Shown: positions 8,371-55,360 of the stretch, in pieces
How positions within the stretch are numbered: position 1 is the first letter of the stretch
Layout: the number at the start of each line of letters is the position of its first letter
DNA from: Paramacrobiotus metropolitanus
Taxonomy: Eukaryota; Tardigrada; Eutardigrada; Parachela; Macrobiotidae
DNA length: 64,000 nucleotides
Direction of reading: 5' to 3'
NCBI RefSeq assembly: GCF_019649055.1
Contig: NW_026570237.1
Span: 1,426,001-1,490,000 of the forward strand
Program-made: the position numbers and the translations under genes
Notes under the pieces: generated by a model
Databases searched by the model: none
What the model saw: only the letters and a program-made list of their open reading frames with translations
Told to the model about the DNA's origin: nothing

Positions 8371-11300
8371 ATGCTTTATGGCAGTCAGTTCGAGCGCAGT
8401 CGCAGTCTGCCATTCTTGCCTGACGGGGAGAGTTTTCACGACAGTCTGTGCAAGTTTCTTGAACTTTCTTCATTTGTGTTACTTAAGAGTTAAGAGTTAA
8501 GTCTCCTGATAAGTGTTAGCTCAGTTAGCTGCACTGCATACTTCGTGCGGCAAGAATCTTGCCTCTCTACAGAGGGGCATTTCTTGAAGATTCGTTGCAA
8601 TTTGTCAAGGATGATTCAGAGTAGCAGTAGTAGCAGAATCAAACTTTGTATTGCAAAGATTAGGTCTAACACATGTTGCCACATTGCAGGCGCCTGTAAA
8701 ATGTGTCTTTTAGACAGTTCGTGCAGGCATTTGTTGATCTCGCACTCGTTGCACTTTTGATATTTACCTTTAATGCATCTGCAGATTGCGAGAAATGTCA
8801 GTGCTTCCTGAGGGAGCCGTGTTGGCAGCATGCAGTGTTCGTTCAGGACGGATACAGTCTTCCGCTGGCATTTGCTAGTTTGCCAGATAACTTGGGCTTC
8901 CATCATGACAACTCACTGCAAAATGTGGAACAATCTTCAGAGAACAGCGCAAGTATGTAATTCAGCGGAAATACGTATGTGCTGTACCAGTGTATTTTTT
9001 TGCGGTGCATTTGCAAGAACGCTGCCTAATTTGCGTTGGACAATTTTGGTACATGTGCTACATGTCGTCAACGTTTGACGTCCAGTCGCAGATTATTAAT
9101 TTAATAGTTTTTCTTTGGTATGGGTGTTTGTACCTTAACACAAGTGCGCTGTATCGTAGTCCCGTCGGTCGTGGCGCGAACGGCTATCCGTCCGCAAACA
9201 GTGTTCGGACCGTTTATAGCGCCGCTGTGCGATGTCGGCGCAGCTCATTCGCGGACATATTCGTCGGCCGACGGACAGCATGTGACGTGCAGTCCAGGGA
9301 ATGATCATTGGTGCAACTGGATGAAGTTGGTCAGGACGGTTGACCACGGCCAACACAACCTCCGCGTCTTCATCCGAGAACACAAAGTCCTCTTCGTCGC
9401 CGTCAAGGTCATCCTTCCCGGCGAAGAACTCACACTGGCGTTGCCTCAAATTGACCGGAAGGAAATCATCGACAGCCATGTGAATTACGTAGCTGTATCT
9501 ATGGGTGAGTCCTACCTTCTGCGTTGGCAAACTGGTTGCCTGTACTATCTGTACGTGGAAAATTTCGATCGTGCGGATTTTTTCATTTGAAAAATGTACA
9601 TTTACATTTTTACATTTTAGAAATTCTTTTACATTTGCGTTGCGTCGCGTCCCGACTCGCGGGCTGAACCTAGATATTTGTTATAAACTCTTATTCAGGG
9701 TTCTATTTGTGCAGATGTGAGTAGCGGTACTTATGGTGACGAAATTTCCTGCTTGGTTAAGAGCGAGGATGATGGCGGCCAAGATAGCAATATGAAAGCG
9801 ATACCCGTGGCAGTTGCACTCGACGTTCCTGCTGCTTGTTTTTCCGTGGATGCACGGCCTGCGGCACAGCATGCTGACCAGATAGATCTCTTGGCATGTT
9901 CCCAGCCACTGCCAGCGCCGTCGGAAGGGCACACGCCGGCACCACTGCCTTTAACGCGCAGTATGCAACGCGAAAATTCTCCGGAGTATCCATTTCCTTC
10001 TAGCTTCCGTCCGATTGCACCTGATGCATCACTAAAAGCGGCGTCCCATCCGGAGAAACGTCAGAGTGATGAGAAAGAATCCACCGGTGTTGCGTCAAAG
10101 CAAACACCCTTCTCGCGTGTTTATTCCCTTCGTGGACGAAACGTCGCAAGCGCCAGTTTAGCCTGTAGCGATGACGATTTCTCGGATGACCGCAACGAAG
10201 ATTTCTGGTCAGCTGCGGACAACGGTACGTTGATATCGATTACTATCGGACATTGCCGCATTTCAGGATAAAATAAATCAAAGATCAGTTAAATTTCTTT
10301 TGTGTTTTTAGTTTCTTCCTCTACCGAATCTGATTACTGTAGCGAAGTAGAGGTGAACTTAGACAATGCAACGCCAAAAAGTGGGGACAGTTTGACATTC
10401 TGCACTAGACGAATCATCATTCTGAGTGTTTGTTGTTTGTATTATGCATGTTTATAGGGCGAGGTAGGAAACGTCGCACAGTCAACGCGAGAGCCAAGTT
10501 GCCTCCGAAGAAAATCGGAACAGTGGGGGCAGTGTTACCAAGTAATGGTACAAATTCAGTAAATGTATACGTTGAATTGACTAAGCACACCGCCATAATC
10601 GGATTAATTCAGTTTGCAGGTCCGGAATGCCGAATGAACTAGCTGCAGGGTGCTCGCGTGTGGAGAGAATGCGACGATTGAATGCGGTTGCTAAGATTAA
10701 TCCCTTACAGTTCTCCTCCCGCAGCGAACGTAGTGCTGCGTGGAAAGCAGTGTGGCAGGCGTACACGACGGATGATGTGGCATCGAAGAATTCCAAGTTT
10801 TCATGCAGAAAGCTGCAGATCTATGTCCAGTATCAGTTGGACAATTTTTCCATCTTGCTCGATCGCTACAACGAGAATGGCGACGTAGTTGGGTTGGATC
10901 AGTTGGACCTTGCAGCTGACACTGGGAAAGCGCCTCCGAAACCCCTTCTCCTTGAAAATTATGAGCACGATAGATGCAGACGCTACTTCAGTTACGTTTA
11001 CAGATTTGTGTGTTGGGAGTGCTCTTTGCATTTCATGGACGAAACACTATTGAACTTGCACAAGTTGCAGCATACTGATTCACCCGGCGAAGCTGCTGAT
11101 CCGCGGGATTGTCCAGTATGCAGGCGATCTTTCAGCAAACTGTCCAATTTATTGCGACATGTCATCGACCATGGCGCGAAAGCTTCGCAGATCGTACATT
11201 TTATCCCGACTGCTGATCCCAGCATTATGTGCTTTGCTTGCAAAACGGCCGCTCCGATGGATGTGTTAGCGCAGAGCCATGACGCTCACGAGACGTGCTT

Positions 11301-12353
11301 CTTGTACAGTTGCGGATTAAATCATTGCGGACTGCGATTTTGCACGGAGTCGATGGCTGATCTGCATCAACTCAGTCACAAAGTGCCGGATAACTATCAG
11401 GGCGATGTTGTTTGTGCGGGATGCAACCACGTAGCTGCCAATGCGGAGGATTTGCTGAAACACGTCGGTCGGCATGGAGCGAAACTGAATGATCACAAAA
11501 TGTGTCGTTTATGTGGAAAGTTTGTGCCGCATATGGTCGAACATGTCCAGACTAATCACAAGGAAGGATATCTCAACTACGAAGCATGTCTGACTCTGCC
11601 CTGCGACCAGTGCGAGAAACGGTTTCGGACACCTATCCATCTTGCCACCCATAAAGCTGTAAGTGTTCCAGATGCTATGGGAATGTTTTATTCACTCCTG
11701 CGGAATAATTATGTCGCTACCTTCAGACTGAAAATTGCTGAGGATGTGTTTTTTTGAGCGCGTGATTTTTGCCTACTTTTTTGTCTTGTTTTTAGTGTGC
11801 ACCGGAACACCGCAGTAGAGGTTCACAAGTGTTAGGATGTCAGGTTTGTGCTAAACAGTTCCCTTCGTCCCTTCTGCTGCATGCGCATGTGAAAAAGGAT
11901 CACGCAACGGGCTTGAAATGTATGGTGTGCCAAAAAAGCTACTCGAAGTATCTACGCTTACAACGACACTCACTAACGCACCAGGAGATCCATGTTTGCA
12001 ACACCTGTGGGTCGGTATTCCGTTCCAAGCAATGTCTAGTTCAGCATGAGTTCATTCATCGCTCGGATTATTCCTTCAAATGTGATTTGTGTGGAAAGAC
12101 TTTCAAAAGATCATGCAACCTGTGGCAGCATAGAATGATCGTTCACACGGACAAAATGCGCAAGAAGCGCCAAGCGAAACGGGAGGAAATGCGGCGGAAG
12201 GGAGTAGTCAGCGAGTACAAGTGTCCGCGACGGAGAATGCTCTATGAAGAGTTCCCGTTCAAATGCGAGGAATGCCGGCTCGGCTGGATGCTGCTGGGCA
12301 ATCTGCAGCAGCACCAACGGAAGAAGCATTCCCAGAATGTCGCAACTGTGTAA
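8371..12353 (+). CDS. PRDM-like gene A: zinc knuckle, SET domain, single finger module (intact)
   Basis: Eight exons splice in frame: 8371-8449, 8785-8952, 9160-9504, 9715-10224, 10312-10380, 10458-10547, 10613-11658 and 11796-12353, giving 954 codons. Introns 1-6 are phase 1 and intron 7 is phase 0. Exons 1/2 join to make YCEKCQ, as in the PRDM9 pre-SET knuckle. Exon 3 has FGPF, WCNWMKLVR and LPGEEL of a PRDM SET domain. Exon 4 is an acidic Ser/Pro-rich linker, exon 6 has RGRKRR (likely nuclear localisation), exon 7 has the NPFQ domain and about six C2H2 fingers, and exon 8 has five more. The start differs from the sister genes (upstream ATG) and intron 1 has a GC donor (GCAAGT). Exon 7 lacks about 30 residues that follow the LDRYNE motif in the other copies. 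The likely role is a nuclear DNA-binding regulator. PRDM membership is inferred from motif order. Confidence 0.8.
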
Positions 12354-15441: not shown

Positions 15442-18400
15442 ATGGCAGTCAATTCGAAGGCAGTGCCATGCTTGCCCTATGGGGAGAGCTCATGTGACAG
15501 TCTTTGTGAGTTGCCTCGTTTTTGGTTTTCTGATCTGGTTTCAGCTTGTTATCCGATAGAAAATGCTTCAGGATCGCTGGCCGCTGGTTTAGGCTACTAT
15601 ATAAGTATTAGTCGAGCGGGTGACGGTTTTACTGTCTCGTTGCATATCTGCGCTTTGCTCATCTTGCAGATTGCGAGAAGTGTCAGTGTTTCCTGCCAGA
15701 GCCCTGTTGGCAGCATGCAGTGTTCGTCCAGGACGGATACAGTCTTCCGCTGGCCTTTGCCAGCTTGCCGGATATCTTGGCGTTTCGTGACGACAGTCCA
15801 CTGCAAAATGTCGGCCAGTCTCCTGAGAACAGCGCAAGTATGTAATTCAATCGGGAATGCTTTTGTAAGTCTATGTTCCGTCGTCACTCCTTGTGCATTT
15901 AGTGGAACAGCTGCGTTGCATTTCTTGATACTTGTGACCTTGTCACAAGGCGCTTGTGAATTTGTTCTCGTGTGTGAGTTTTCGTCGTCCATCTAAATGT
16001 CCAGTTGGGATAATGCTCACCATTTTTATTAGATGTGTCAACATTAAATATTAAATAACACCGGGTGCCTGTTAATGTTTCCGTATGCGCTTTTGCTGAA
16101 ATAATCCTTGTGGTGAATCTGCTTTCTCGCAGTTTTATTCCTGCTTGTCATTTGCAGTCCCGTTGGTCATTGCCCGTACGACCATCCTTGCGCAGACGGT
16201 GTTCGGGCCATTTATAGCCCCTGTGTGCGATGCCGGTGCAGCGCATTCGCGGACATTTGCATCGGCCGACGGGCAGTGTGTGACGTTCGATGTGGGTAAT
16301 GATCGTTGGTGCAACTGGATGAAGTTGGTCAGGACGGCTGACCACGGCCAACACAACCTCCGCGTCTTCATCCGGGAACAGAAAATCCTTTTCGTCGCCG
16401 TCAAGGTCATCCTGCCCGGCGAAGAACTCACACTAGCGCTATCCAAGCGTGACCGGAAAGAGATCATCGACAATCATGTGAATTATGTAGCAGTTTCTGT
16501 GGGTAAGTAGGTTTTATTCAGACAACGGCCAATAGTTTACATAACAAAACTACCTGAGTTAATTAATAAATCAACAAAAATCTCTACTGTCATCGCCAAC
16601 TTTCGATTGCGTAGTAAATTCGCAAGGCGGTTGTCAGCCTGTCAGGGCATGCCGTTAAGTCTTAATTCTTAATTCGTGATCAATTTGCTTGATTGGATTT
16701 CAGCCTCCTTTCGGTTTCTAAGAGAAACTAAATATGATTTAAAATCAGATTTATCCGCATGGGATATTTGTTTAGATTGTGCGATGAGCGGTGCTGCGGT
16801 AAACCAAGATACTTCCATGGTGAAGTGCGAGTGTGAAGATGGCCGCGTGGAAGACGTGGCACAGCAAATGGCGGAAGCTGCACTGATCCTTACTACTTGT
16901 CGTTTCTCATTTGACGGTGATAAGCTGACTTTGGCACATGATCAGACAGATGTCTTACCTCCCCATACCCTACCACTGCCAGCGCGATGGGAAGAACAAT
17001 CGCATGCATCGCTTATTGTTCAGCGCAAAGGCTCACCCGAGTTTCCGTTTCCCTCCAACTTCTCCTCAGCTGCACTGGATACTTTGCCGGAGAAAGCTGC
17101 GGATGCGAGGAAACTGAAGATCGAAGAGAAAGAGGCGGCGTCGGAGCAGTTCTATGTCTCGACGCGTGTGCATTCCCTTCGTAGGCGAAATGTCGTACGT
17201 GCCGGTATTACCCGTTATGATGATGACTTTTCGGATGATAACGATGACGATTTCAGCTTATCCGGGGTCAGCGGTACGGTGATATCGGTGTTACTGGATC
17301 CAGGATTCACTTTAGCTTGAGGTTCTTGTGCTGCTTGTAGATTCATCAACGACTGATTCCGAATGCTCCAGCGAAGCTGAAGGGGATTTGCAAGGTGGCA
17401 CGAAAAAAAGTAGGAGCAGTTTGAGAACTTGCAGAAGTTACTGTATGTTGCGTGTCTGTTACTTAAATTGCGAGTGTTTGATGTTTATAGAGCGAGGCAG
17501 AAAAGCTCGCGTGGTAGGCACGAGAGTCAAGATACTTCCGAAGAAAACTGAAACTGTGATGCGAAAAGATACTGCGGAAAGCGTATTAGCAGCTAAAGGT
17601 AGAGTACATGTCACGCACAAACTGGCACAGTGACATAATCGTATCGTTTCAGGTTGCAATTCTGAAGAGCCGAATGAACCATCTCTAGTAAGGACAAAGG
17701 AGGGCACGAAATACCATTCGGAGAAAATGCGGCGATTAAATCTGGTTGCCAAGATTAATCCCTTCCAGTTTTCCTCGCGAAAGGAACGTCGCGCTGCATG
17801 GACAGCAGCGTGGCAGGCATACCAGGATGATGCGGAAGTTGGTCATCGGCCGCGGAAATCGCAGAAACCCACGTTCTCTTGGAAATATTTCCGGCAATTT
17901 GTCAAAATGCAGTTGGACAATTTTCCTCAAGCGCTCGATCGCTACAACGAAGATACCGCCAGTGAAAGCAGACGACAGTATATCCAAGTTATGCGAGTAA
18001 TAGCGCAGCAGGCGGGGAAGGATTATGCCGATGGCGCGAATGGATTAAACGTTGCTGTTAACTCGCATTTCAAGTCACGTACACTTGAGAATTATCGACC
18101 TAATAAATGGTTTCCAAGTTTCGTTTACCGATTCGTGTGTCGGGAGTGCTTGTTGCATTTCAAGGACGAAAACGTGCTGAAACTCCATAGTATACAGCAC
18201 AGTGGTACACCGAGCGAAACCACCGACTTATTGGATTGTCCAGCGTGTCAGAAATCGTTCAAGAAGTTGCCCAGTTTGCTGTGCCATATCATCCAGCACG
18301 GTGAAAGCAGCACAGATCATCCATTTTATCCCGACTGCTGATCCGAGCATCATGAGGTTCGCATCCAAAACGGCCGCTCCGATGGAGGTGCTAACGCAGA

Positions 18401-21400
18401 GTCATGACGCGCATGAGACGTGTTTCATGTACAGTTGCGGCATGGTTGTGTGGGCTGCGATTTTGCACGGAGACAATGTGCGATTTGCACCAACTCAATC
18501 ACAACGTGCCGGAAAACTACCAGGGCGATGTTGTCTGTGCGGGATGCAACTTCCAAGCTGCAGATGCCGGCGATTTGCTGCGGCACGTCGGTCGACATGC
18601 AGCCAAGAAATATGATCGGAAACTGTGTCGGTTATGTGGAGATTTTGTGGAGAATATGGTTAGTCATGTCCAGAGCATGCACAAGGAAGAGTATCTTAAG
18701 TACGAAAGCTGTTTAAACCTGTCCTGTGACCAGTGTGAACAAGGATTTCGGACGCCTATCCATCTCGCCACGCACAAACTGGTAAGTGTTCCCTGGGTTT
18801 TTTTGCAATTCGGTTGCTAATTCTAGCAGAGTAAACGAATTTGCAGAGTGGAAATTCAATGACAGCATCTCATTGGTTCTGCCGTTTTAGTGGGTGCACA
18901 ATGGTAAACAAGGTCAACTGCGATGCCTCGTTTGTGCGAAGCCGTTCTCGACGACCCATCAGCTGCATGCGCATATAGAAACGGAGCATACAACGGGTTT
19001 GACGTGCGTGGTGTGCCAGAAACGTTGCTCAACTTATATCGGCTTGCATAAGCACGCGAAACGACACAGGGAGATCCATGCTTGTCGCACTTGTGGCTCG
19101 GTGTTCCCTTCTGTGACCGCCCTAAATCAACATCAGCGCGTTCACCGGTCTGTCGCTTCCTTCAAATGTGATTTGTGCGGAAAGACCTTTCAGAAATCGC
19201 TCAATCTGGCGAAGCATAAAATGATCGTTCACACGGATGAAATGCGGAAACCGCGCAAAGGCAAACTGGAGGAACTGTGTCGGGAGGGAGTGGTGAGGGA
19301 GGAGAGTGATAACGAAAATGAAGTTCCACTGACCGCTTCGTTTAAAGATGTTCAGCTGGCGCGCCATAATCAGAGTGGTGTCATACCTCAATTCCTGCCA
19401 TTGCTAGCCCAATGGGAAGAACAACCGTCTGCATCGCGCGTTGTTCAACGCGAAGGCTCACCCGAGTATCCGTTTCCCTCTGATATTCGTCTAGTTGCGC
19501 CTGATGCGTTATCTGAAAATTCTGTCAGTCCAGGGACGCGGCACATTAGAGAGAAAGAACTAGCCGATGGTGCTTCGGAGCAGATATCCTACAAGCGTTT
19601 CCAATCCCTTCGCAAACGAAGTGGCGCAGGCGCCGGTGCAGCCTGTAATGATGTGGATTTCTCTGATGACAACGATGAATATTTCTCTTTTACTGGGAAC
19701 TATGGTACGATGATATCGGTCATTAATCGGACGTTGATGGGTGTAAGATTACCTGATTTTATTCTTTTATTGCTTGAAGATTCGTCGGTAGCCACTCAAG
19801 TTGAATATTGCCATGAAGTGGCAGCGGATTTGGAAGGTACCAACACAAAAAGTGAGAAAATTTTGACAATCTAACCTGGGAATAAGTAGCGTGATGTCAT
19901 TTAATGGTAAGTTATGATTTATCCTCGTATGTATTTTATAGATCGAGGCAGAAAACGTCGCATGGTCGATGCGAAAACCAGGATGTCACCATCGTCGAGC
20001 CGTTGCCCGAAGAGAACCGGAACGATACAGAAACAGATACACACAGATACTGCGGATACGGTGCCAACAGTTGATGGTAGATTTTGTCTGTTTGGTGTAT
20101 TTATGTGCATGAATTAATTTGTCGGTTTGTCGCAGATTTGTCGGCAAATGTAGCACCGTGGGGGCTCCCGCCTGCTGCGTTTCTTCAACTTTCTTGAGGC
20201 GCGGAACCGACTGATCAGGGCCGTGATTGCCGTTAACCCATTCCAGTATCCGGCTGGAGAGCAGCGGTTGCTGGCGTTTTCCACCGCTGCGACCCTGCTG
20301 CTGCCTGACCAGGCTTTGCTAGGGATGAAAAAGCTCGATGGACCAGCGCTAGAGCGGTCCATAGAGAACCGTCTACATAACTTCAAAAGATTACAGCGCA
20401 GTAATCAACTCCCCTCGTTGTGGAGACCTGCCGAGTTCGTTTCACTGATGGATGAGCTGACTGCATTAAAAGACAGTAAACGCTCGGACAGCATGTCCGA
20501 GAAAATACGGCGAGTAAAAGCGGTTGCCAAGATCAATCCCTTTCAGTTCTCCTCGCGAAGTGAACGCAGCGCCGCGTGGACAGCAGCATGGCGCGCATAC
20601 TTGGATGATGCGGAGGACGATGATTCTCCGGAAGAACTGACGAAACGAGTCACGTTTACATGCAAAGACCTTCAGAGGTGTGTTCTGAATTATTTGAAGA
20701 CTTTTCCCCAAGCGCTGCAACGTTATGACGAAAGTACCGGCGATCTATCCGAACGGAAGTACGTCGAGGTAATGCGAGCGCTAGCACAGCAGGTGGGAAT
20801 TATTTATGCCGATGACACGCATCCCATGGCCATTCACAGCAGTGTCGACGCTATTGGGGCGGATCAGTTGAACGTTGCAGCTGACACATGTTCATCAAAG
20901 GAACTCAAACGGCGTCAGCTTTGGAATTGTCGATTCTTAAGTTACGTTTACCGATTCGTTTGTTGGGAGTGCTCGTTGCATTTTAAGGATGAAAACTTAC
21001 TGAAACTCCATAACATGCAACACCGTGATAAATCCAGCGAAATCAGTGTCTCACTAAATTGCCCATCCTGTCAGCGATCGTTCAAACAGCTGGCAAACTT
21101 GCTCCGGCATGTCAAGGACCACGGTGTGAAAGCCGCGAAGATCATCCATTATATCCCGACTGCTGATCCCAGCATCCTGTGCTTCGCGTCCAAAACGGCC
21201 GCTCCGATGGATATACTAGGGCAGAACCATGAAGCACATGAGACTTGCTTCATGTATCGCTGCGGAATGGGTGGTTGCGGACTGCGATTCTGCACTGAGA
21301 CATTATGCGACCTGCATCAACTCAGCCACGACGTGCCGGATGATTATCAGGGCGAGGTGGTTTGCGTTGCATGCAACTTTCAAGGGAAGGATGCGAGGGA

Positions 21401-22308
21401 TTTGCTGAAACATGTCGGCCGGCATGCAGCGAAGGCCAGCGATCACAAGTTATGTCGTTTGTGTGGAAAATTTGTCGAGGATATGATCGGGCACGTCCAG
21501 ACTAATCACAAGGAAGAATATCTCAAGTACGAAGCGCGTCTTACTCTGCCCTGTGATCAGTGCGAGAAGCGGTTTTGGAACCCTGCTCATCTCGCCACCC
21601 ATAAAACTGTAAGTGTTCCGCGGTCTTGTCTTTATTTCTCCCCGATTCTTATAAAATTGCTGGCTTACAATGGCAGATACTAATTCCCAGCTTGCAGTTA
21701 TTCAATATTCGTTTTTGACCTTTCAGTGTGCACACGAAAGTGTAAGTTGTCTGGTTTGTGCCAAACCGTTTACATCGAGCTTTCAGCTGCATGCCCATGT
21801 AGAAAAAGAGCACACATCGGGTTTGATATGTGTGGTGTGCCAGAAAAGCTATCCAACATATGCCGGCTTGTATAAGCATGCAAGAAAGCACAAGGAGGTC
21901 CATATTTGTCGCACTTGTGGCGCGGTGTTCCGTTCTAAGGACAACCTAGTGCAGCATGAGCCCATTCACCACTCGGACTATTCTTTCAAATGTCATTTGT
22001 GCGACAAGACCTTCAAGAGATCCTGCAACCTGTCGCAGCATAAAATGATCGTCCACACGGATAAAATGCGCAAGAAGCGTCAAGCGAAACGGGAGGAAAT
22101 GCGCCGGAAGGGAGTGGTCAGCGATTACAAGTGTCCCCGACGGAGGATGCGCTACGAAGAGTTCCCGTATAAGTGCGAAGAATGCCGGCTTGGCTGGATG
22201 CTGCTGGGGAATTTGCAGCAGCATCAACGGGAGAAGCACTCCACCAATGACGCAACCGAGAAAACTGGCAAAAACCATCCGGTATCTGTTTCCAGTGGAA
22301 ATGCTTAA
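15442..22308 (+). pseudogene. PRDM-like gene B, two finger modules, three frame breaks
   Basis: Thirteen exons are recognisable: 15442-15505, 15670-15837, 16158-16502, 16776-17273, 17341-17409, 17491-17598, 17653-18781, 18891-19704 (fingers fused to a second acidic linker), 19780-19851, 19942-20076, 20136-21608 and 21727-22308, where the fused exon counts for two ancestral ones. Knuckle, SET and linker read intact. The first NPFQ/finger exon has two 2-bp deletions relative to its sisters (about 18,300 and 18,445). The second has a 10-bp insertion of a TTCTT duplication near 20,185-20,195 that leads into a stop. All splice borders are kept, so the damage is recent, or partly assembly error. 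The last exon is intact with five fingers. Confidence 0.7.
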
Positions 22309-34863: not shown

Positions 34864-34899
34864 TACCGACCACATTAACGGTTAATGTGGTCGGTATTT
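34861..34899. repeat. 19-bp perfect inverted repeat in intron 2 of gene D
   Basis: Arms 34861-34879 and 34881-34899 pair exactly around a single G. It follows directly on the 14-bp inverted repeat, giving two adjacent hairpins 80-145 bp before the SET exon. Confidence 0.9.
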
Positions 34900-37800: not shown

Positions 37801-40800
37801 ATTTTTCTGCAGTCGTCTTGCTACTTCTGGCGGAATAAATGCAATTTTAATGACCGAGCTTCCTCTCATCTCATTGGTTTTGCCTGTTTAGGGGTGCACA
37901 AAGGTGAACGAGGGCGAATAAAGTGTCTGGTTTGTGCACAACCGTTCCCATCGGCCCGAATTCTGCATGTGCATATAAAAAAGGAGCACACAACTGGTTT
38001 CCCATGTGCTGTTTGCCAGAAAAGCTGGTCAACGTACACCGGCTTATATGATCACGCGAAAATGCACTCGGAAATCCACACTTGTCGCACCTGTGGCTCA
38101 GTGTTCCGCTCTAATCACCAGTTAATTCAGCATCGACGCATTCACCGATCTGTCCATGCCTCCAAATGTGATGTGTGCGGAAAGACCTTTAAGCTACCGA
38201 GCCATCTGTCACGACATAAAACGTTCGTTCACACGGATGAAACGCGGAAGAAGCACACATCTGAACGGGAAGAAATGGAGAACCTGTCTGCTAGTTGTTT
38301 CTCCTTTGATGATCTATTGCCTCGGTCCCAGTCTGAAGAACAAGCACCCGCACCGCTGCCTGCATCGCGCATTTGTCAGCGGGGAAACTCACCAGAGTGT
38401 GCATTGCCTTCTAATATCGGTTTAGCTGCATCTGTTGGGCTATCGGAGGAAACTGTCGATGCGGGGAAACGGCACAGTGGAGAGAAAGAATCAGCCGGTG
38501 CGGCTTGGGAGCAGATGTCATTGGCGCGTCGCCATTCCCTTCGAAGTCGGAATGGCGTAAGCGCCGTTGCAGCCTGGAATGACGAGGATGTCTCTGCTGA
38601 CAAACATCAAGATTTCTGTATGGCGGGGAACACCGGTACTGGTTTTTGACCGGTCGGTCCGGGGTTCAGTTTGTCCTGATTTTCTTTGTCTGCTGCTTTA
38701 GATCCGGCATCTACCGAGTACTGCAGCGAAGTAGAGGATCTGGAAGATGACGCGAGACAAAGTGAGAAAAGGCGCATGGAATATGTCATTTTTCTGATTT
38801 TCCGTCATTTTACTTTTGGCGTGTTTATAGAACGAGGCAGAAAACGTCGCATGGTTGACGCGAGAGCCAAGATGCCCCTAAAGAAAACTGGAAGGGTGAT
38901 ACGAAAAGACCTTGCGGAAACGACGTTCGCAACTGACGGTAAATTAATGCTTTTCCTTAGATTAACAGTTAGCATAAAAGCCGTAAGTATACTCGACGAC
39001 TTGCACTATTAATGGTGTATAAACATAAATTATATCGTAATGACGCATTTACATTACGGTTTGCAGATTCGCCGAAAAGGAAAAAGCTTCCTCCAACTGC
39101 TGCGTTCCTTGAGGCGCGGAACAAGATGATAAGAGCCCTAATTGCCGTTAATCCCTTCCAGTATCCGGCTGGAGAGCAGCGGTTGCAGGCGTTTTCCACT
39201 GTTGCAACCCTGCTGGCGTCTGACCAGGCTGTTCTAGGGATGCGACAGCTGGATGGATCCGTGTTGCAGCGCAGTACAACGATGCGTGTGGATAAGTTCA
39301 AAAGAAAGCGGGGTAATAATCGGAGCAACGCAGCCTGGTGGCCGGAGGAGTACGTCTCCCTGATGAAGGAACTGACTGCGTTAAGCAGCGATCGCTGCAA
39401 GGACGCTGGAGCAGAGGAAATACGCCGCCTGAAGGCGGTGGCCAAGATTAATCCCTTCCAGTATTCTTCGCGAAGTGAACGCAGCGCCGCATGGACAGCA
39501 GCGTGGCAGGCGTACCGGGACGATGCGGAGAACGATGGTTCCCAGGAGCGGAAAGCAAGGAAGGTCGCAATTTCATGCCGAAAACTACCGCGATTCGTCC
39601 AGATGCATTTGGATAACTTTCCACAAGAACTCGATCGCTACAACGAGCAAACCGCTAGTCAGTTTCAGCGAGAGTATATCCACGTGATGCGGGTGGTAGC
39701 ACAGCAGGCGGGGAAGGATTACGCGGATATCGCGCCTCCTTTGACTGTTCACAAGGATATCGATGCAGTTGGAGTAGATACGTTAAATGTCGCCGTGGAA
39801 ATCCAGAGTACACAATCCACTCGACGGTCAGTTAACCATCAGTCCAACTACCGTTTCGTCAGCTGTGTATACCGCTTCGTATGCTGGGAGTGCTCGTTGC
39901 ATTTCAAGGATGAAAACCTACTTAAACTCCATAAAATGCAGCATAGCGATGCCCTGCCTGTCCCACTGGATTGTCCAGTTTGTCAGCGATCGTTTACGAA
40001 AGTGGCGAATCTATTCCGGCATGTCATGGATCACGGTGTGAAAGCGTCGCAGATTGTGCATTTTATCCCGACGGCTGATCCCAGCATCATGAGCTTCGCT
40101 TCTCCAACGGCCGCTCCCATGGATGTGCTGGCGCAAAACCGACGCCCATGAGACGTGCTTCATGTACAGTTGCGGAATAAAAAATTGCGGACTGCGATTT
40201 TGCACGGAGGCGATGGCGAATGTGCACCTACTCAGTCACAACGTGTCGGATGACTATCAGGGCGATGTTGTTTGTGCGGGATGCAACTACGTGGCTGCAG
40301 ATGCCGGCGATTTGATTCAGCACGTAGGACGGCATGGAGCGAAACTGCGCGATCGGAAATTGTGTCGTTTGTGTACGACATTTGTGGTGAATATGGAGCA
40401 GCACGTCCAGATGAAACACAAGGAACAGTATCGTAGATACGAAGCGGGTCTGACGGTTTCCTGCGATCAATGTGAGAAACGATTTCGGACGCGTGCACAT
40501 GCCGTGAACCACAAACATGTTAGTAATTGTTTCATATGTTTCGCATTCTTTCTGCTATTGATACGGAATGTGTATGATTGCGAAAATTACCGACTTCCTA
40601 GTTTTTAAATTGTTTTTTGTTTCATTGTAGATTGCACACACAAGTTTACAAGCGTTGAGTTGTCTGATTTGCGCCAAACAGTTTGCCTCGTCCAGTCTGC
40701 TGCAGTTGCATATAAAAAAGGAACATGGAAAGGTGTTAACTTGTGTGGTGTGCCAGAAAACATACTCAAAATATTGCCTCCTATATACGCACGCAAAAAC

Positions 40801-41140
40801 CCATAAGGAGGTCCATATCTGTAAAACCTGTGGCTCGGTGTTCCGCTGCAAACAGAGTCTGGACCAGCATGAGTACGGTCACCGGGCTGACTATTCCTTC
40901 AAATGTGATTTGTGCGGAAAAACATTCAAGAGACCGACCAACTTGATGCAACACAAAATGGTCGTTCATACGGATAAAGTGCGGAAGAAGCGCAAAGCCC
41001 ACGCGAGGAAATGCGCCGAAAGGGAGTGGTCAGCGAGTACAAATGTCCGCGACAAAGGATGCGATACGAAGAGTTCCCGTTCAAATGCGAGGAATGCCGG
41101 CTCGGCTGGATGCTGCTGGGCAATCTGCAGCAGCATCAGC

Positions 41141-41600
41141 GGAAGAAACATCCCGATGCCCCTGCAACTGTTCAAAGTGGCAAGAAATAGTCTTTCGGCG
41201 TTTTTTTCCACAGGATCGGTTAGCTGGCGGCTGATCGATCTGTTTGATTTTTCATAATAATTTGCAATCAGAAATCGCAGTTGTGGACGCTGCAGAAGGA
41301 CGTGTACCCACTTTTACATTGTTGGTCGCATCGCTGTATGTACGAGTATTCAAAATTAATAAAACAATTCGTGTACACAAAAATGACATTTTATTCAGTG
41401 TACATTTTATTATGCGTTTAGAATATGTGAATGAACAATCCATTTCAGTTAAAAATCCAATTCCGTATTTATAATGGGTTCAAAAAATATTTTAACAAAT
41501 CCGTCTAATAATATTATTTCATTATACACCGTAAAGTAACAAAGCACCCAAGCTGTCATTAACACAACACTGGTTGAATTTTTTTACCGGATCTAGCGCT
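41141..41600. repeat. Segmental duplicate of 30,434-30,900 (3' end and flank of gene D)
   Basis: Near-identical to the gene C 3' flank, including the stop context, poly(A) signal and AT-rich tail. Weaker similarity continues into the 3' flanks of F-box copies 1 and 2. Confidence 0.85.
41358..41363 (+). terminator. Poly(A) signal candidate for PRDM-D
   Basis: AATAAA, 168 bp after the ancestral stop, at the same place as in gene C. Confidence 0.5.
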
Positions 41601-44249: not shown

Positions 44250-47200
44250 ATGGAAGTCAGTTCAAACGAACTGCCATTCTTGCCCGACGAGGAAGGTTTT
44301 CACGACACTCTTTGTGAGTTTTTTTCATCGTCCGTTCGTTAGATTGCAGCACAATCAAAGATTGATTGCTAGAAAGAGACCCGTATTAAACTGGAAACTG
44401 GTATCACTGAAATATTGCAGCGGTGTCACGGTGTGTGAATTCTGCGTACTCTGTAGTGCGTGCAAGTTTGTGTCGATTTCACTGACGTCGCGATTTGGTT
44501 AATTTGCAGACTGCGAGAAATGTCAGGCTTTCCTGCAGGAGCCGTGTTGGCAGCATGCAGTCGTCGTCCAGGACGGATATAGTCTTCCGCTGGCCTTTGC
44601 CAGTTTGCCAGATGTCTTGACTTTCCATTATAACGATCAACACCAGAATGTGTTGCAGCCTCCAGAGAACTGCAATCGTGAGTGCACAGTAGCAATGTAG
44701 CAGAGAGAAAGATCATTCTCTCTGATTGTAGTTTTTCCTGTAACAATCTGCTCGTGTCATCATAAAAATTTAGATTTTGATTTTTATATACAGTACTAGT
44801 AAAATTTTTTTGCTTCAAACGTTTGCAGTTGTCCATTTTATTTCGTGTTTGCCCAGTAGTTGCAGTTTTTCATTGATTACGCTTTATCGTAGTTGGTTTA
44901 TTCATATAAAGTCTTTTCAACTACTTCTTTCGCTTAGTGCATTGGCATTTTTGACAGCATTACAAGTAGATAAAAATTATTTATTGGATGAACTGTTGAT
45001 GTGAAAAATTACTCTGTTTTGTACCGTTTAGATTTCCCTCCCGATGTTTGCAGTTTTAGCGCTTTGACGTGAATTCTTGTAGTTCCGTCGGTCGTGGCTC
45101 AAACGACCATCCGCCCGCAAACTGTCTTCGGGCCATTTATCGCCCCACTGGGCATTCCGGGTGAGGCGCATTCGCGGACATTTTCATCGGCCGACGGGCA
45201 GTGTGTGACGTTCAATCTAGAGAACGATCGTTGGTGCAACTGGATGAAGTTGGTCAGGACGGTTGACCACGGCCAGCACAACCTCCGCGTCTTCATCCGG
45301 GAACACAAAGTCCTCTTCGCCGCCGTCAAGGTCATTCTTCCCGGCGAAAAACTCACGCTGGCGCTGTATAAGGACGATGTCGATCGGAAGGAATTTCCCA
45401 ACGACAATGTGGACTACGTAGCCGTGTGCGTGGGTAAGCCGCAAGGCTTGATGAAGTACAGTACATACGCTGGTCTCTGCTTGGTTTTCTTATCGATTCC
45501 GAGATTCTGCCTCCTTTCTGTGGTGGAAGTAAAGTACTGCTCAGTTGTATCTTCATGTAATGTTCATGCTTAGATTGTGCGATTAGCGGTACTGAAGTAA
45601 CCGAAGATGCCTCGTCGATCAAGTGCGAGGATGATGAGTGCGGAGATGCTCGTGTGGCATCAAAGTCGGCGGACTTTCCGCTCAACCTCATTGCTGGTTG
45701 TTTCTCATTTGACGGCGATCAGCTGGCTTTGGCACTTGATCAGAGAGATGGAGTGTCTTAGGCCAAACCACTGCCAGCGCAATCGGCAGAACAGCCTCCA
45801 TCGCGCACTGTTCAACGCGACGGCTCACCCGAGTATCCGTTTCCTTCCAGTTTCGGCTCTGCTGCATCTGATGCGTTATCGGAGGAAGCTCCGGGGAAAA
45901 GGCTCAAACGGAGCAGTGCAGAGAAAGAGTCAGCCGGTTTTGCGTCGGGGCAGATGCCCTTCTCGCGTGTGTATTCCCTTCGTGGACGAAATGTTGTACG
46001 CGCCGGTGCAGCCTGCAGCGATGGGGATTTCTCTGAAGACAACGATGAAAATTTTTCTTTAGCTGGGAAAAGTGGTAAGTGCGAAGTGCAGTTCTATTAA
46101 GCCGGTTTTTGATCTGTTACTGCTTGTAGATTCGTCAACTACTGATTCTGAATACTGCACCGAAGTGGAAGATGTTCTGGAAGATTCGACGACAAAAAGT
46201 GGGAATATTCGAATACTCTGCACGAAACGAATAATTCGTCTGCGTGTCTGTCGTTAAATTATGTGTCTTTGTAGAACGAGGCAGAAAACGTCGCATGGTT
46301 GACGCGAGAGACACGGTGCGCCCGCACAAAATTGTTGCTGTGAATCCTGTAATAGGAAAAGACTCAGTGATGCCAGATGGTACAGTATCTGTAATATTTG
46401 CGTTCGTACTTACGGGCACAGTGCCATAACCGCATCACTTCAGTCTGCAGTCCTAAAGTACGGAGCTATGCTCGCACGAAGCTACGTGCGGAGGATATGC
46501 GACGATTGAATGCGGTAGTCAAGATTAATCCCTTCCAGTTCTCTGGTTCAAGGGAACGTCGCGCCGCGTGGACAGCAGTATGGGAGGCGTACCGGGCTGA
46601 CTACGATACCTCGGACAAGCGCAAAGCACAGAAAGTCTTGTTATCGTGCAGATCTCTACAGAAATATGTCCGGTGTCAGTTGCGCAACTTTCCCAACATG
46701 CTCGATCGCTACAACGAGAATAACGCCAATCAAGCCGAGCGAGAGTTTATTGCAGTTATGCGAGTGATGGCGCAGCGGGCGGGAAAGGACTATGCCGATG
46801 ACGCGCATCCCTTGGCCATGCACAAGAATGCAGTTGGAGTGGCCACACTAAGTGCCGCAGTTGACACTCAAAATGCTCATTCCACACTGCGGTCCAATAG
46901 GAAACGACCCAACAGCCGCTACGTAAGCTACGTTTACCGCTTCGTGTGCTGGGAGTGTTCGATGCACTTCAAGGATGAAAGCCTGCTGAATCTCCACAAG
47001 ATGCAACATAGCGGCGCCACCCCTGTCTCACTGGATTGTCCAGCTTGTCAGCGAACGTTCACGAAAGTGTCGAATTTATTCCGGCATGTCATGGATCACG
47101 GTGTGAAAGCCTCGCAGATTGTGCATTTTATCCCGACGGCCGATCCCAGCATCTTGAGCTTCGCTTCCAGTACCGCTGCTCCGATGGATGTGCTTCCGCA

Positions 47201-48293
47201 GAGTCATGGCGCGCATGAGACATGCTTCATGTACACTTGCGGATTGGCTCAGTGCGGACTGCGATTTTGCACGGAGACGATGGCGGATTTGCACCAACTC
47301 AGTCACAATGTGCCAGACGATTATCAAGGCGATGTTGTCTGTTCGGGCTGCAACTATGTGGCTGCCAATGCGGAAGATTTGCTGAAGCACGTCGGTCGCC
47401 ATGCTGCACAGGCGACCGATCGAAAACTCTGTCGTTTGTGTGGAGAGTTTGTGGAGAATATGGTGGTACATGTCCGGACTAATCACAAGGAAGAATATTT
47501 CAAGTACGAAGCGGGTTTAGCCCTTTCCTGTGACCAGTGCGAAACACGATTGCGGACATCAGACCATCTCGCCACGCACAAACTTGTAAGTGTTCTGGGT
47601 TCCACAATCATTTTGAGGATTGTTGAGGAATAGTTTAGAATTTGCAGAGCGAAAATGACAGGCACTGTTTTTCAGCTGGTCACTTTGATCTCTTTTTAGT
47701 GGGCGCACAAGGGTGAACAAGGTCGTCTAGGATGCCTCGTTTGTGCAAAACCGTTCCCATCGACCCGTCAGCTGCATGCACATGTACAAAAGGAGCACAC
47801 AACGGGTTTGACGTGTGTGGTGTGCCAGAAACGCTATTCAAGATATGACCGCTTGCATCAGCACGCGAAAACGCACAAGGAGATCTATATCTGTCCCACT
47901 TGTGGCTCGGTGTTCCGCTCTAAAAGGAGCTTAGTGCAGCATCAGCCCGTTCATCAGTCTGACTATTCCTTCAGATGTGATTTGTGCGGAAAGTCCTTCA
48001 AGAGATCAACCAACCTTTCGCAGCATAAGATAGTCGTTCACACGGATCAAGTGCGGAAGAAGCGCAAAGCCCAACGCGAGGAAATGCGCCGAAAGGGAGT
48101 GGTCAGCGAGTACAAATGTCCGCGACAAAGGATGCGATACGAAGAGTTCCCGTATAAATGCGAGGAATGCCGGCTCGGCTGGATGCTGCTGGGCAATCTG
48201 CAGCAACATCAACGGAAGAAACATTCCCAGGGTGACGCGACTGTGAAAAATGGCACTAGTCATTCGGTGTCCTCTTCCGACGGGAACACTTGA
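44250..48293 (+). CDS. PRDM-like gene E, single finger module, one premature stop
   Basis: Eight exons: 44250-44313, 44510-44677, 45083-45433, 45574-46074, 46130-46198, 46275-46379, 46444-47585 and 47700-48293, 998 codons in one consistent frame. The only break is a TAG at 45759-45761 (codon 257) in the acidic linker, where the sister genes read a Leu-Pro-rich segment. Knuckle (YCEKCQ), SET (WCNWMKLVR, LPGEKL), basic exon with RGRKRR, short-form NPFQ exon with six fingers and a five-finger last exon are all intact. Two outcomes are possible: a recently inactivated gene or segregating null allele, or a truncated SET-only protein of about 256 residues. Read errors are also possible. One SET position differs (GEKL instead of GEEL). 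Confidence 0.7.
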
Positions 48294-51237: not shown

Positions 51238-54200
51238 ATGCAAGGCAGTTCGAACGCGCTGCCATTACTGCCTGATGGGCAGAGTTTTCACGACAGCCTC
51301 TGTGAGTTTGCTGCATGACCCGTCTGTTAGAAATGGTCTACCTGAAAATAGGTGCTTGTTGCTGGAAAATGGCCAGTGTTATGCTAAAGCTAAAGCTCTT
51401 TAGTTGTTGCGATGACTCGCTGCCCTTGCCATGATTGCAGACTGGTGTGATTTCTGCGTGAAGCATGCCTGCATGAGCGTGTGTGTCGAATGTCGATTTC
51501 ACTAACGCTGCGCTTTGATTAACCTGCAGATTGCGAGAAGTGCCAGTGTTTCCTGCGAGAGCCCTGTTGGCAGCATGCAGTGCTCGTGCAGGATGAATAC
51601 AGTCTCCCGCTGGCCTTTGCTAGTTTGCCCGATATTTTGGCTTTCCATCATGACGGTCGACAGACTCAACACCAGAATGTGTTGCAGCCTCCAGAGAACA
51701 GCAACAGTGAGTGCAGGCAGCATTGCAGTCTTTGCTGTGACATTCTACTCGTATCATAATAAAAATAAAGATTTTTGTTTTTTTATACTAGCAAAATTTT
51801 TTCGTTTGAAGTGTTTGCAATTTGTGCATTTTATTTCGATTTGCCCCGTTAGTCGCGGTTATTCTTTAACGTTGTATCGTAGTACTAGTTGGCAATTCAT
51901 ATGCAGTAACTACGGTAGTAACTACTGTATATACAGTACTATTAGTACTTAAATTATTAAATTAATAGGAATTATTAATATGGATGAACCGTTGGTGTGA
52001 TATCGCTCTGTTTTGTGCCGTTTAGATTTGCCTACCAACGTTTGCTCTGTTTAAGAGCTTTGACCTAAATTCTTATTTAATGACCATCGGTTCCATCGCT
52101 TTGATCTAAAATTTTAGTTCCATCGGTTGTGGCACGAACGGCCATCCGTCCACAGACGATGTTCGGACCCTTTATAGCGCCTGTATGCGATGCCGGTGCA
52201 GCGCATTCGCAGCATTCGCAGACATATTCATCGGCCGACGGGCAGTGTGTGACGTTCAATCTAGAGAACGATCGTTGGTGCAACTGGATGAAGTTGGTCA
52301 GGACGGCTGACCACGGCCAACACAACCTCCGTGTCTTCATCCGGGAACGGAAAGTCCGCTTCGCGGCCGTCAAGGTCATTCTTCCCGGTGAAGAACTCAC
52401 ACTGGCGCTGTGTAAGCAGGATATCGATCGGAAGGAAATCATCACGACCATGTGAACTATGTCGCAGTGTCTGTGGGTAAGACGCAAGTCGCAAGGCACT
52501 GATGAAGTATTGCTCATACGCTTGTCTCTATTACTAGTGGGTTTTGTGATCGGTTCTTAGATTCCGTGGAAGTAAAGCACTGCTCAGGTGTATCTTCACG
52601 TAATATTCATGCTTAGATTGCGCGATTAGCGGTACTGGGATAGCCGAAGATGCTTCAGCAATCAAGTGCGAGGATGATGAATATGGAGATGATAATACGC
52701 CAGCAATGTCGGCGGACGTTCCACTCAACCTCGTTGCTGGTTGTTTCCCATTTGACGGCTATCAGCTGACTTTGGCACAAGATGAGGCAGGTGTGCTACC
52801 TCAGTCCCCAGCACTGCCAGCGCATTCAGATGCACAACCGCCTGCGTTACGCATTGTTCAGCGCGAAGGCTCTCCCGAGTATCCGTTTCTTTCCGGCTTC
52901 GGCTCAACTGCATCTGATGCGTTGTCGGAGGAAGCTCTCTGTCCGGGGAAACGGTTCAAACGGAGCAGTGCAGAGAAAGAATCAGTCTTTTTTATGTCGG
53001 AGGAGAGGCCCTTCGCGCATGTTTATTCCCTTCGTGGGCGAAATGTAGTACGCACTGGTTTATCCTGTAATGATGCGGATTTGTCCGACAGCAGCGATGA
53101 AAATTTCTGTTTATCGGGGAACAGCGGTACGGTGATATCGATCATTGTTCTGATCCAGGATTCAGGTTGGCCTTATTTTTTTCTTCTGCTTGTAGATTCT
53201 TCAACTACCGATGCCGAATCTTGTAGCGAAATGGAAGAGGATCTGGAATATTCAACAACAAAAAGTGAGCGCGGTCGAACAATCTGCACGAAATGAGTAA
53301 TTCTTCTGAGTATCAGTCATTGAGTTATGCGTGTTTGCAGAACGAGGCAGAAAACGTCGCGCGATTGATGCGAGAGGTACGAGATCTCCACCCAAAATTG
53401 GAGCTATGATTCGAGAAGACGCCGCTGATACAGGGTTACTGACTAATGGTACAGTAACTATCTGCGTTCGTACTAAAGACCACAGCGCCATAATCGTATC
53501 AGTTCAGTTTACAGGGCGAAAGAGCCGAATGAACTACCTCCAGCCAGGAGCAACAAACGCGGGCAAAGGCATGAAGAACAAATGCGACGATTGAATGCGG
53601 TTGCCAAGGTTAATCCCTTCCAGTTTTCCTCGCGAAAGGAACGTCGCGCTGCATGGACAGCAGCGTGGCAGGCGTACCAGGATGATGCGGAAGTTGACCA
53701 TCGGCAGCGGAAATCGCAGAAAGTCACGTTCACATGGAAATATTTACGGAGATATATCAAAATGCATTTGGATGATTTTCCCCAAACGCTGGATCGCTAC
53801 AACGAAGATACCGCCAGGGAAAGCAGACGACAGTATATCCAAGTTATGCGAGTGATAGCAGAGCAGGCTGGAAAGGATTATGCCAATAATGCGCATCCCT
53901 TGACCATTGACAAGAATGTCGACGCAGTTGGGGTGGATATGTTCAGTGTCGTAGTTGACACTCAGAATACACCATCCACACGGCGGTCTGTTAAAAATCA
54001 CTCCAACAGCCGCTACGTAAGCTATGTATACCGTTTCGTATGCTGGGAGTGCTCGTTGCATTTCAAGGATGAAAACCTGCTGAATCTCCATAATTTGCAA
54101 CACAGCGGTGCGCCCAACGAAAGCACGATCTCACTGGATTGTCCCGCTTGTCGACGATCGTTCCAGAAGCTGCCGAATTTATTGCATCATGTCATGGATC

Positions 54201-55360
54201 ACGGCGTGAAAGCCTCGCAGATTGTCCATTTTATCCCGACAGCTGACCCCACCATCATGAGCTTTGCTTCCGGTACGGCGGCTCCCATGGATGTGCTGGC
54301 GCAGAGTCATGACGCGCATGAGACGTGCTTCATGTACACTTGCGGATTGGCTCAGTGCGGACTTCGATTTTGCACGGAGACGATGGCGGATTTGCACCAA
54401 CTTAGTCACCGCGTGCCGGATAATTACCAAGGCGAAGATGTTTGTGCGGGATGCAACTATGTGGCTGCCCATGCGGAGGATTTGCTGAAGCACGTCGCTC
54501 GGCATGGAGCGAAAGCCAGCGATCGAAAACTGTGTCGTTTGTGTGGAGAGTTTGTGGAGAATATGGTGGTGCATGTCCAGACTAATCACAAGGAAGAATA
54601 TCTCAAGTACGAAGCGGGTTTAACTCTCCCCTGCGACCATTGCGACAAACTATTTCGAACATCTATCCATCTCGCCACGCATAAAGTGGTAGATATTTTG
54701 CAATACTTCAGCTAAGCCTAGCGGAATACTTATGAATTTGCTTTTTACTCGTTGTTTTTGTCCTTCTTAGTGGGCACACAAAGGTGAACAAGGGCGACTA
54801 AGATGTCTGGTTTGTGCAAAACCGTTCCCGACGAACCATCAGCTGCATGCACATGTAGAAAAGGAGCACACAACGGGTTTAACGTGTGTGGTGTGCCAAA
54901 AAAGCTATTCAAGATACGACCGCTTATATGAGCACGCGAAAACGCACAAGGAGGTCCATATTTGTCCCACTTGTGGCTCGGTGTTCCGCTCTAAAAGGAG
55001 CTTAGTGCAGCATGAGCCCATTCACCGCTCGGACTATTCAAATGCCATTTGTGTGACAAGGCCTTCAAGAGATCCTGCAACTTGTCGCAGCATAAAATGA
55101 TCGTGCACACGGATAAAATGCGCAAGAAGCGTCAAGCAAAACGGGAGGAAATGCGGCGGAAGGGAGTGGTCAGCGAGTACAAGTGTCCACGACGGAGGAT
55201 GCGCTACGACGAGTTTCCGTATAAATGCGAAGAATGCCGGCTCGGCTGGATGCTGCTGGGTAATTTGCAGCAACATCAACGGAAGAAGCATTCCGATCCT
55301 ACCGAAAATGTTCAAACTGGCCCTAGTCATTCGGTGTCTGCTCCCAACGGAAACGCTTAA
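51238..55360 (+). pseudogene. PRDM-like gene F, single finger module, two frame breaks
   Basis: Eight exons: 51238-51301, 51530-51706, 52118-52476, 52617-53126, 53196-53264, 53341-53448, 53508-54688 and 54771-55360. The knuckle exon is nine bases longer than in the sisters. The SET exon has a 9-bp in-frame duplication (CATTCGCAG, giving HSQHSQ) and then a 1-bp deletion near 52,447 that brings a TGA into frame before the exon end. The linker, basic and NPFQ/finger exons are open and intact. The last exon has a 4-bp deletion near 55,039 within the third/fourth finger. A finger-only product would need an internal start. Inactivation seems recent because all splice borders survive. Confidence 0.7.

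What the first reader, a model, noticed from the sequence alone, without database searches (positions are those of the whole stretch)
8371..55360. Tandem array of six PRDM9-like knuckle-SET-zinc-finger genes
Six genes in one orientation share exon borders, phases and domain order. The exon 1/2 junction rebuilds a PRDM9-type YCEKCQ knuckle and exon 3 a PRDM SET domain. A local expansion of SET-plus-C2H2 genes outside vertebrates, without KRAB or SSXRD, is unusual and may be a lineage-specific gene family.
Basis: partly seen in the sequence, partly recalled or inferred. Interest (0 to 1): 0.9.

Follow-up and report, generated by a model that had tools for sequence, protein, structure and literature searches.

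The report
Tardigrade tandem PR/SET zinc-finger gene array
A water-bear genome carries a row of duplicated DNA-binding genes, some intact and some apparently broken, that belong to a far larger and seemingly undescribed family built from a PR/SET domain and zinc fingers whose DNA-reading positions differ from copy to copy.

Summary
The window lies in the tardigrade Paramacrobiotus metropolitanus. Six same-strand genes share a split zinc knuckle, a PR/SET exon (PF21549), a linker and C2H2 fingers, with matching exon borders and phases. The 12-exon model of gene C equals NCBI's 1911-aa protein letter for letter.

Corrections:
- Only A and C are open throughout. B, D, E and F carry frameshifts or a stop, real or from assembly.
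- A, E and F have 8 exons; B, C and D have 12, with a doubled linker-NPF-finger module.
- 'PRDM9-like' fits the knuckle; a PR-core profile is nearest PRDM10. The Trp-Tyr motif kept in another subfamily is absent in 12 of 12 exons of this one.
- The six are part of nine same-strand copies, and of 85 PR matches genome-wide.

In the distal fingers, DNA-contact residues vary more than other residues (permutation P=0.002; closest pairs alone not significant). Best reading: a birth-and-death repertoire of sequence-specific chromatin regulators with a probably non-catalytic PR scaffold, resembling KRAB- or ZAD-zinc-finger radiations. Function is inferred. I found no earlier report in the paper library searched.

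The parts
8371..12353 (+). Gene A, 8 exons: 8371-8449, 8785-8952, 9160-9504, 9715-10224, 10312-10380, 10458-10547, 10613-11658, 11796-12353; 954 aa, open throughout
   Evidence: Spliced model, one GC donor (intron 1), otherwise GT-AG; PF21549 in exon 3. Only its last 439 aa are in an NCBI protein seen here (hybrid P0001); its exons 1-6 rest on homology to the other copies
15442..22308 (+). Gene B, 12 exons, doubled linker-NPF-finger module; frameshifts at about 18309 and 18445 (exon 7) and within about 20136-20190 (exon 11)
   Evidence: NCBI protein P0011 matches it for 568 aa and ends at the first frameshift
23255..30483 (+). Gene C, 12 exons, doubled module, 1911 aa, open; exons 23255-23324, 23574-23741, 24031-24381, 24616-25263, 25332-25406, 25490-25597, 25721-27162, 27257-27926, 27996-28064, 28145-28258, 28342-29801, 29923-30483
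   Evidence: Identical to NCBI protein P0013; PF21549 3.5e-12 and zf-C2H2 1.3e-29
34173..41190 (+). Gene D, 12 exons, doubled module; lesions near 37110 (exon 7), 37892 (exon 8 one base short), 40137 (exon 11), 41000 (exon 12); end taken at the stop homologous to gene C's
   Evidence: NCBI P0009 matches the first 629 aa of the model
44250..48293 (+). Gene E, 8 exons; in-frame TAG at 45759 in linker exon 4 (codon 257), rest open
   Evidence: NCBI P0008 matches from aa 322 onwards (676 aa)
51238..55360 (+). Gene F, 8 exons; frameshifts near the 3' end of exon 3 and at about 55038 in exon 8
   Evidence: NCBI P0007 is labelled LOW QUALITY PROTEIN
9160..9504 (+). PR/SET exon of gene A (others: B 16158-16502, C 24031-24381, D 34980-35312, E 45083-45433, F 52118-52476)
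   Evidence: PF21549; no Trp-Tyr after G-E-E/K-L in all 12 subfamily exons
8785..8952 (+). Zinc-knuckle exon of gene A (others: B 15670-15837, C 23574-23741, D 34453-34620, E 44510-44677, F 51530-51706)
   Evidence: CEKCQ...PCWQH; a knuckle exon was found before 29 of 30 PR exons examined
28342..29801 (+). Gene C second module, exon 11: two NPF repeats followed by the proximal fingers
   Evidence: Repeat 1 against repeat 2 by hhalign E=4.4e-12; no Pfam hit there, best PDB E=1.9
27257..27926 (+). Fused exon of gene C: distal fingers of module 1 run without a stop into the linker of module 2 (same kind: B 18891-19704, D 37892-38635)
   Evidence: present in P0013
11796..12353 (+). Terminal distal-finger exon of gene A (4 variable fingers plus one near-invariant finger)
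   Evidence: Contact residues vary more than other residues across 13 modules

Best explanation
A birth-and-death tandem array of tardigrade-lineage regulators. Each intact gene encodes a protein with a zinc knuckle, a PR/SET domain, a fast-changing linker, one or more copies of an unnamed 'NPF' domain, and C2H2 fingers in a proximal and a distal array. Shown: the anatomy, the clustering, the lesions of some copies, the sequence constraint on knuckle and PR domain, and the raised variation at contact residues of the distal fingers. Inferred: the protein acts in the nucleus; the distal array reads a different DNA target in each paralog; the PR domain, having lost the Trp-Tyr motif, no longer methylates histones itself and acts as a docking surface for chromatin partners; the repertoire is kept changing by moving targets, most plausibly transposable elements, as proposed for KRAB- and ZAD-zinc-finger families.
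For: PR domain and fingers by Pfam; NCBI model identical for gene C. 64 PR-exon matches to the gene C exon, 12 PR exons close, and 85 PF21549 matches, 50 of them on one contig. Knuckle exon before 29 of 30 PR exons examined. dN/dS about 0.19 for knuckle, 0.29 for PR (first 100 codons), 0.55 for linker over the six window genes. Distal fingers D1-D4, 13 modules (12 for D1): pN 0.418 at contact codons against 0.241 at other codons, permutation P=0.002; helix position 2 has on average 7.0 different residues, and 13 of 13 fingerprints are distinct. Proximal fingers show no such excess (P=0.30), so it is not simply drift over all fingers. Trp-Tyr absent in 12 of 12, KVWYS kept in 7 of 7 of subfamily S3. 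Module doubling is older than the C/D split: first modules pair (99/98) and second modules pair (95/90).
Against: Contact-site pN/pS is 0.81-0.83, below 1, and dS is high, so positive selection is not shown. The three closest pairs alone give P=0.07 (one-sided) or 0.13 (two-sided), and the test of replacement against silent change is not significant for any of three pair sets (P=0.08-0.25). Four of six window genes carry lesions. No expression, binding or chromatin data were available, and the transposon link is untested.
Confidence: 0.55

Rival explanations
1. A mostly decaying relic: the array is a by-product of unequal crossing over, most copies are pseudogenes, and finger variation reflects relaxed constraint and not new specificities.
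For: Four of six window genes have frameshifts or a stop, ten lesions in all; contact-site pN/pS stays below 1; a decayed terminal-exon fragment lies upstream of gene A.
Against: A and C are open, and NCBI has long models for four neighbours Y, Z, G and I (P0004, P0002, P0005, P0003). Structural codons stay nearly fixed (pN 0.016 with pS 0.65), the fifth finger is nearly invariant, and knuckle and PR are constrained. Relaxation would not be expected to single out contact positions of one array. Some lesions may be errors of the nanopore/Canu assembly (PMC11191345, passages).
Confidence: 0.25
2. A true PRDM9-type system: the genes set meiotic recombination sites by trimethylating H3K4 where their fingers bind.
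For: YCEKCQ knuckle aligned to PRDM9 chain 4c1q (1.6e-5); knuckle-PR-finger order; variable finger contacts.
Against: Trp-Tyr motif absent in 12 of 12; no KRAB or SSXRD match in the proteins scanned or in the genome (where the controls were silent); no minisatellite finger array; subfamily-wide PR profile nearer PRDM10.
Confidence: 0.05
3. Conventional developmental or stress-response transcription factors, multiplied by dosage or subfunctionalisation, with no conflict driving them.
For: PRDM proteins are commonly developmental regulators (recalled); one survey counted few PRDM genes in nematodes and arthropods (PMC2082429, passages).
Against: 85 PR matches and local bursts, no protein from another tardigrade in the three searches, and changing contact residues are not typical of conserved developmental factors.
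Confidence: 0.15

Closest known systems
PRDM10/PRDM15-type PR-zinc-finger proteins
   Same: Best PDB match of the PR profile is PRDM10 (1.1e-21); two THAP-containing relatives in this genome are named PR domain zinc finger protein 15-like by NCBI (P0014, P0015).
   Different: PRDM10 keeps KVWY, which this subfamily has lost; NPF repeats, tandem multiplication and doubled modules.
PRDM9 (and PRDM7)
   Same: Zinc knuckle YCEKCQ before the PR domain; C-terminal C2H2 array with variable contact residues (that PRDM9 fingers vary is recalled).
   Different: No KRAB or SSXRD found, no Trp-Tyr motif, fingers only 30-50% identical to each other at DNA level in the three modules compared and no finger-length tandem repeat, many copies.
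KRAB zinc-finger proteins (tetrapods)
   Same: Clustered C2H2 radiation with birth, death and contact-residue change (features recalled; review PMC4592553 seen as search listing only).
   Different: PR/SET and knuckle in place of KRAB; 85 PR matches here, not hundreds of genes (recalled for KRAB).
ZAD zinc-finger proteins (insects)
   Same: Lineage-specific C2H2 expansion; one member guides Rhino to piRNA clusters (PMC9531945, title and start of abstract seen in the listing only).
   Different: Different N-terminal domain, no PR domain (recalled).

Membership tests
PRDM family | PR/SET domain | tested here: met
   PF21549 above cut-off in all six window genes (A and C)
PRDM family | C2H2 fingers C-terminal to the PR domain in the same protein | tested here: met
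   NCBI P0013 (= gene C), P0002, P0005 scanned whole; gene A by model
PRDM9 | Zinc knuckle directly before the PR domain | tested here: met
   YCEKCQ aligned to PRDM9 chain 4c1q; not exclusive: also in 17 of 18 loci of other tardigrade subfamilies and, by eye, in a grasshopper protein (P0016)
PRDM9 | N-terminal KRAB and SSXRD | tested here: not met
   Not in the four proteins of this subfamily scanned whole (P0002, P0005, P0009, P0013); 0 matches in the genome, but controls were silent
PRDM9 | Catalytic Trp-Tyr motif of the PR/SET domain | tested here: not met
   12 of 12 subfamily exons read L-x-L in its place; that this Tyr is catalytic in PRDM9 is recalled
PRDM9 | Near-identical tandem (minisatellite) finger repeats | tested here: not met
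   No finger-length tandem repeat; distal fingers 30-50% identical within modules A, C and C2
PRDM9 | PR domain nearest PRDM9 among PRDMs of known structure | tested here: inconclusive
   Profile over several subfamilies: PRDM10 first, PRDM9 in rows 6-8; gene C PR alone: PRDM10 0.001, PRDM9 0.0044; gene A knuckle plus PR: PRDM9 first, 1.6e-5
PRDM9 | H3K4 methylation and hotspot placement in meiosis | not testable with these tools
   needs experiment
Expanded C2H2 repertoires (KRAB-, ZAD-like) | Tandem clusters of lineage-restricted paralogs | tested here: met
   protein searches (limited sensitivity)
Expanded C2H2 repertoires (KRAB-, ZAD-like) | Excess change at DNA-contact positions | tested here: inconclusive
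   P=0.002 by column permutation, but closest pairs and replacement/silent tests not significant
Expanded C2H2 repertoires (KRAB-, ZAD-like) | Binding and silencing of transposable elements | not testable with these tools
   needs CUT&RUN and knockdown

The most novel reading that the evidence does not exclude
Tardigrades of this lineage evolved their own genome-defence zinc-finger repertoire, convergent with KRAB and ZAD zinc fingers but built on a knuckle-PR/SET platform: PR domains of some subfamilies keep the Trp-Tyr motif while this one became a non-catalytic recruiter, and new specificities arise by changing distal finger contacts and by doubling whole NPF-finger modules inside a gene.
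Probability: 0.3. Interest if true: 0.8.

Novelty: new variant of a known kind. Interest (0 to 1): 0.6.

Why it matters
PRDM genes are few in other protostomes surveyed: 2 in nematodes and 3 in arthropods by one 2007 survey (PMC2082429, passages). Here one genome has 85 PR-domain matches, many in local clusters. If the finger divergence is adaptive, it offers an independent test of whether zinc-finger radiations arise wherever genomes face moving DNA targets, whatever effector domain is at hand. The subfamilies with and without the Trp-Tyr motif side by side also make it testable whether a PR domain needs catalysis for this job.

Tried and rejected
PRDM9 as a label for the PR core: not upheld by the subfamily-wide profile, though single queries are close or favour PRDM9 when the knuckle is included. 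A PRDM9-type minisatellite: rejected. KRAB/SSXRD: no matches, with silent controls, so weak evidence by itself. Nature of the NPF domain: I first guessed a SANT/Myb-like fold; no Pfam or PDB sequence match supports it, and structure prediction never ran, so I leave it unnamed. Replicating the finger test in subfamily S3: proximal fingers of 6 of 7 loci were readable and look conserved, but too few distal fingers lay in the fetched DNA, so no test was made. Other tardigrades: only the protein database could be searched (3 searches, relatives must share 5-residue words; only the 8000 candidates sharing most words were scored); absence there is not proof of absence. Homopolymer sequencing error as the cause of the lesions: 7 of the 10 lesion contexts were printed and do not sit in long homopolymers, but assembly error is not excluded.
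Full report
WHERE. The window is G000:C17:1426001-1490000 of a 169.8 Mb genome. Protein matches name the species: the 11 best hits of the spliced gene A product are all Paramacrobiotus metropolitanus proteins, on a contig of the same length as C17, 1,648,765. The published assembly was made by Canu, with nanopore reads of N50 about 17 kb (PMC11191345; passages, section 16).

OBSERVATION. A self-comparison of window ORFs shows repeated exon sets on the + strand. Six PR/SET exons start at 9160, 16158, 24031, 34980, 45083 and 52118. PF21549 (PRDM2_PR) matches with E=1.5e-10 and 6.1e-13 for the two exons scanned alone, and all six are among the 85 genome-wide matches. The 5' part of the six genes aligns with sharp conservation at exon 1, the knuckle exon and the PR exon. 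Splice sites that I chose from this conservation give phases 1,1,1,1,1,1,0, with the exon 1/2 junction making Tyr-Cys-Glu-Lys-Cys-Gln.

GENE MODELS. Gene A has 8 exons and 954 aa. Gene C has 12 exons and 1911 aa, and equals NCBI protein P0013 letter for letter. NCBI proteins for B, D and E agree with my models over blocks of 568, 629 and 676 residues. Weaker points: for gene A only the last 439 residues are in an NCBI protein that I saw (P0001, a hybrid with a neighbour), so its 5' exons rest on homology; my joined F model shares no block of 15 or more with P0007, because it is out of frame after its exon 3 lesion, although P0007 itself carries F's linker and fingers; nor did P0010 match the joined D model, for the like reason. 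Whether RNA-seq supports the NCBI models was not visible.

LESIONS. Frame-aware alignment of the finger exons, joined models and exon lengths against gene C show three frameshifting lesions in B (two in exon 7, one in exon 11), four in D (exons 7, 8, 11, 12), two in F (exons 3 and 8) and one stop in E: ten in all. A and C are clean. NCBI marks the F protein LOW QUALITY. The lesions could be real or assembly errors.

DOUBLED MODULES. B, C and D carry linker, NPF, proximal and distal fingers twice. The first terminal exon has lost its stop and last finger and runs into the second linker. In a tree of distal fingers, first modules of C and D pair (99/98) and second modules of C and D pair (95/90); B is unresolved. 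The proximal-finger tree has no fork at full support. So the doubling came before the C/D duplication.

A MISSED DOMAIN. Before the proximal fingers lie one or two copies of a repeat of about 90 aa with the motif NPFQ[YF] (NPLQF in gene A). The two copies are related to each other (hhalign 4.4e-12). There is no Pfam match there and no PDB match (best E=1.9). All 22 matches in the genome lie downstream of a PR exon on the same strand, within about 4.5 kb, including clusters on C73 and one on C47 (one search compared).

THE LARGER FAMILY. A search with the gene C PR exon gives 64 matches, two of which are pieces of one exon; 12 PR exons form a close subfamily (65% identity or more), nine of them on the + strand between C17:1415809 and 1504429. 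PF21549 gives 85 matches, 50 on C17, 10 on C73 and 9 on C12. A few are probably ordinary PRDM genes, and split exons may count twice; the tool calls its counts lower bounds. In a tree of 33 PR domains the subfamily is one clade (100/99) and two other local clusters form their own clades (97/93 and 98/98); deeper forks are unresolved. The knuckle exon precedes the PR exon in 29 of 30 loci examined (12 of 12, 7 of 8, 7 of 7, 3 of 3). Another architecture adds an N-terminal THAP domain (P0014, 1.3e-10).

WHICH PRDM. The gene A knuckle plus PR scores PRDM9 best (1.6e-5), helped by the knuckle. The gene C PR alone gives PRDM10 0.001 and PRDM9 0.0044. A profile of 11 tardigrade PR domains from several subfamilies scores PRDM10 1.1e-21, PRDM4 3.3e-18, PRDM1 6.4e-18, PRDM11 6.1e-16, PRDM9 8.1e-14. 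No phylogeny with named PRDM proteins was made. The residues after E-E-L are KVWYS in 7 of 7 S3 exons, while all 12 exons of this subfamily lack Trp and Tyr there. PRDM10 aligned with S3 shows the same KVWY. That the Tyr is catalytic in PRDM9 is recalled; so loss of activity is inferred.

FINGER EVOLUTION. I compared 13 modules (9 in the window, 4 fetched nearby). In the distal array (fingers D1-D4), contact codons (-1, 2, 3, 6) have pN 0.418 against 0.241 at other non-structural codons (permutation P=0.002; finger D1 of gene A was missed by the pattern, and P3 of B is lost to a frameshift). With D1-D4 complete for all 13 modules the values are 0.414 and 0.242. Structural codons hardly change. 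The proximal array shows no excess (P=0.30). Against: pN/pS at contact codons is 0.8; the closest three pairs give P=0.07 one-sided or 0.13 two-sided; six pairs give P=4.6e-5 or 0.016 depending on the pairing; replacement against silent change is not significant in any of the three pair sets. All 13 four-finger fingerprints differ. Knuckle, PR and linker have dN/dS 0.19, 0.29 and 0.55 (lesioned genes included).

DISTRIBUTION. Three protein searches returned, outside this species, only a shark zinc-finger protein (2.6e-44) and a grasshopper knuckle-PR-finger protein (1.2e-10). No other tardigrade appeared. These searches need shared 5-residue words, so distant relatives may be missed.

LITERATURE. 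Searches for PRDM9 with tardigrade, PRDM with lineage-specific expansion, PRDM9 with SSXRD and invertebrate, PRDM with gene family expansion, PR domain zinc finger with tardigrade, and C2H2 zinc finger with tardigrade listed no paper on this family, judged by titles and abstract starts, in the open-licence library. By word search, the P. metropolitanus transcriptome paper (PMC11191345), a tardigrade zinc-finger paper (PMC12941274) and a metazoan zinc-finger paper (PMC10547256) have no occurrence of PRDM. Papers outside the library were not searched.

CONCLUSION. The label PRDM9-like should become PR/SET zinc-finger with a PRDM-type knuckle. The larger point is a genome-wide PR/SET zinc-finger radiation with local bursts, decay, module doubling and changing distal finger contacts.

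Noticed in passing
31221-33712, 41919-43765, 48958-50800 (- strand): A repeated minus-strand gene lies head to head upstream of D, E and F; F-box PF00646 in the two copies scanned for it (3e-7 and 2.3e-6), the third by similarity only. The later duplications seem to have copied a two-gene unit.
   Followed up: partly
13950-14981 (- strand): A KMT5A (SET8)-like methyltransferase ORF between A and B (best PDB match SETD8, 3.1e-36; PF00856 1.4e-15).
   Followed up: partly
59982-63395 (- strand): Reverse transcriptase, RNase H and integrase ORFs of a retroelement beside the array.
   Followed up: no
2505-2863 (+): A decayed fragment of a terminal finger exon upstream of gene A.
   Followed up: no
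10613-12353 and L039: NCBI isoform X2 of the neighbour LOC129585455 (P0001) joins its 5' exons to gene A's fingers across another gene; the junction has GT in the donor copy and AG in gene A. It could be read-through splicing or an artefact of similar reads.
   Followed up: partly
L043-L049: PR genes of subfamily S3 seem to have very long finger arrays built from repeated finger pairs.
   Followed up: partly
G000:C12 and C17 (P0014, P0015): THAP domain joined to knuckle, PR and C2H2 fingers in one protein (Pfam scan of P0014; precomputed domains of both).
   Followed up: partly
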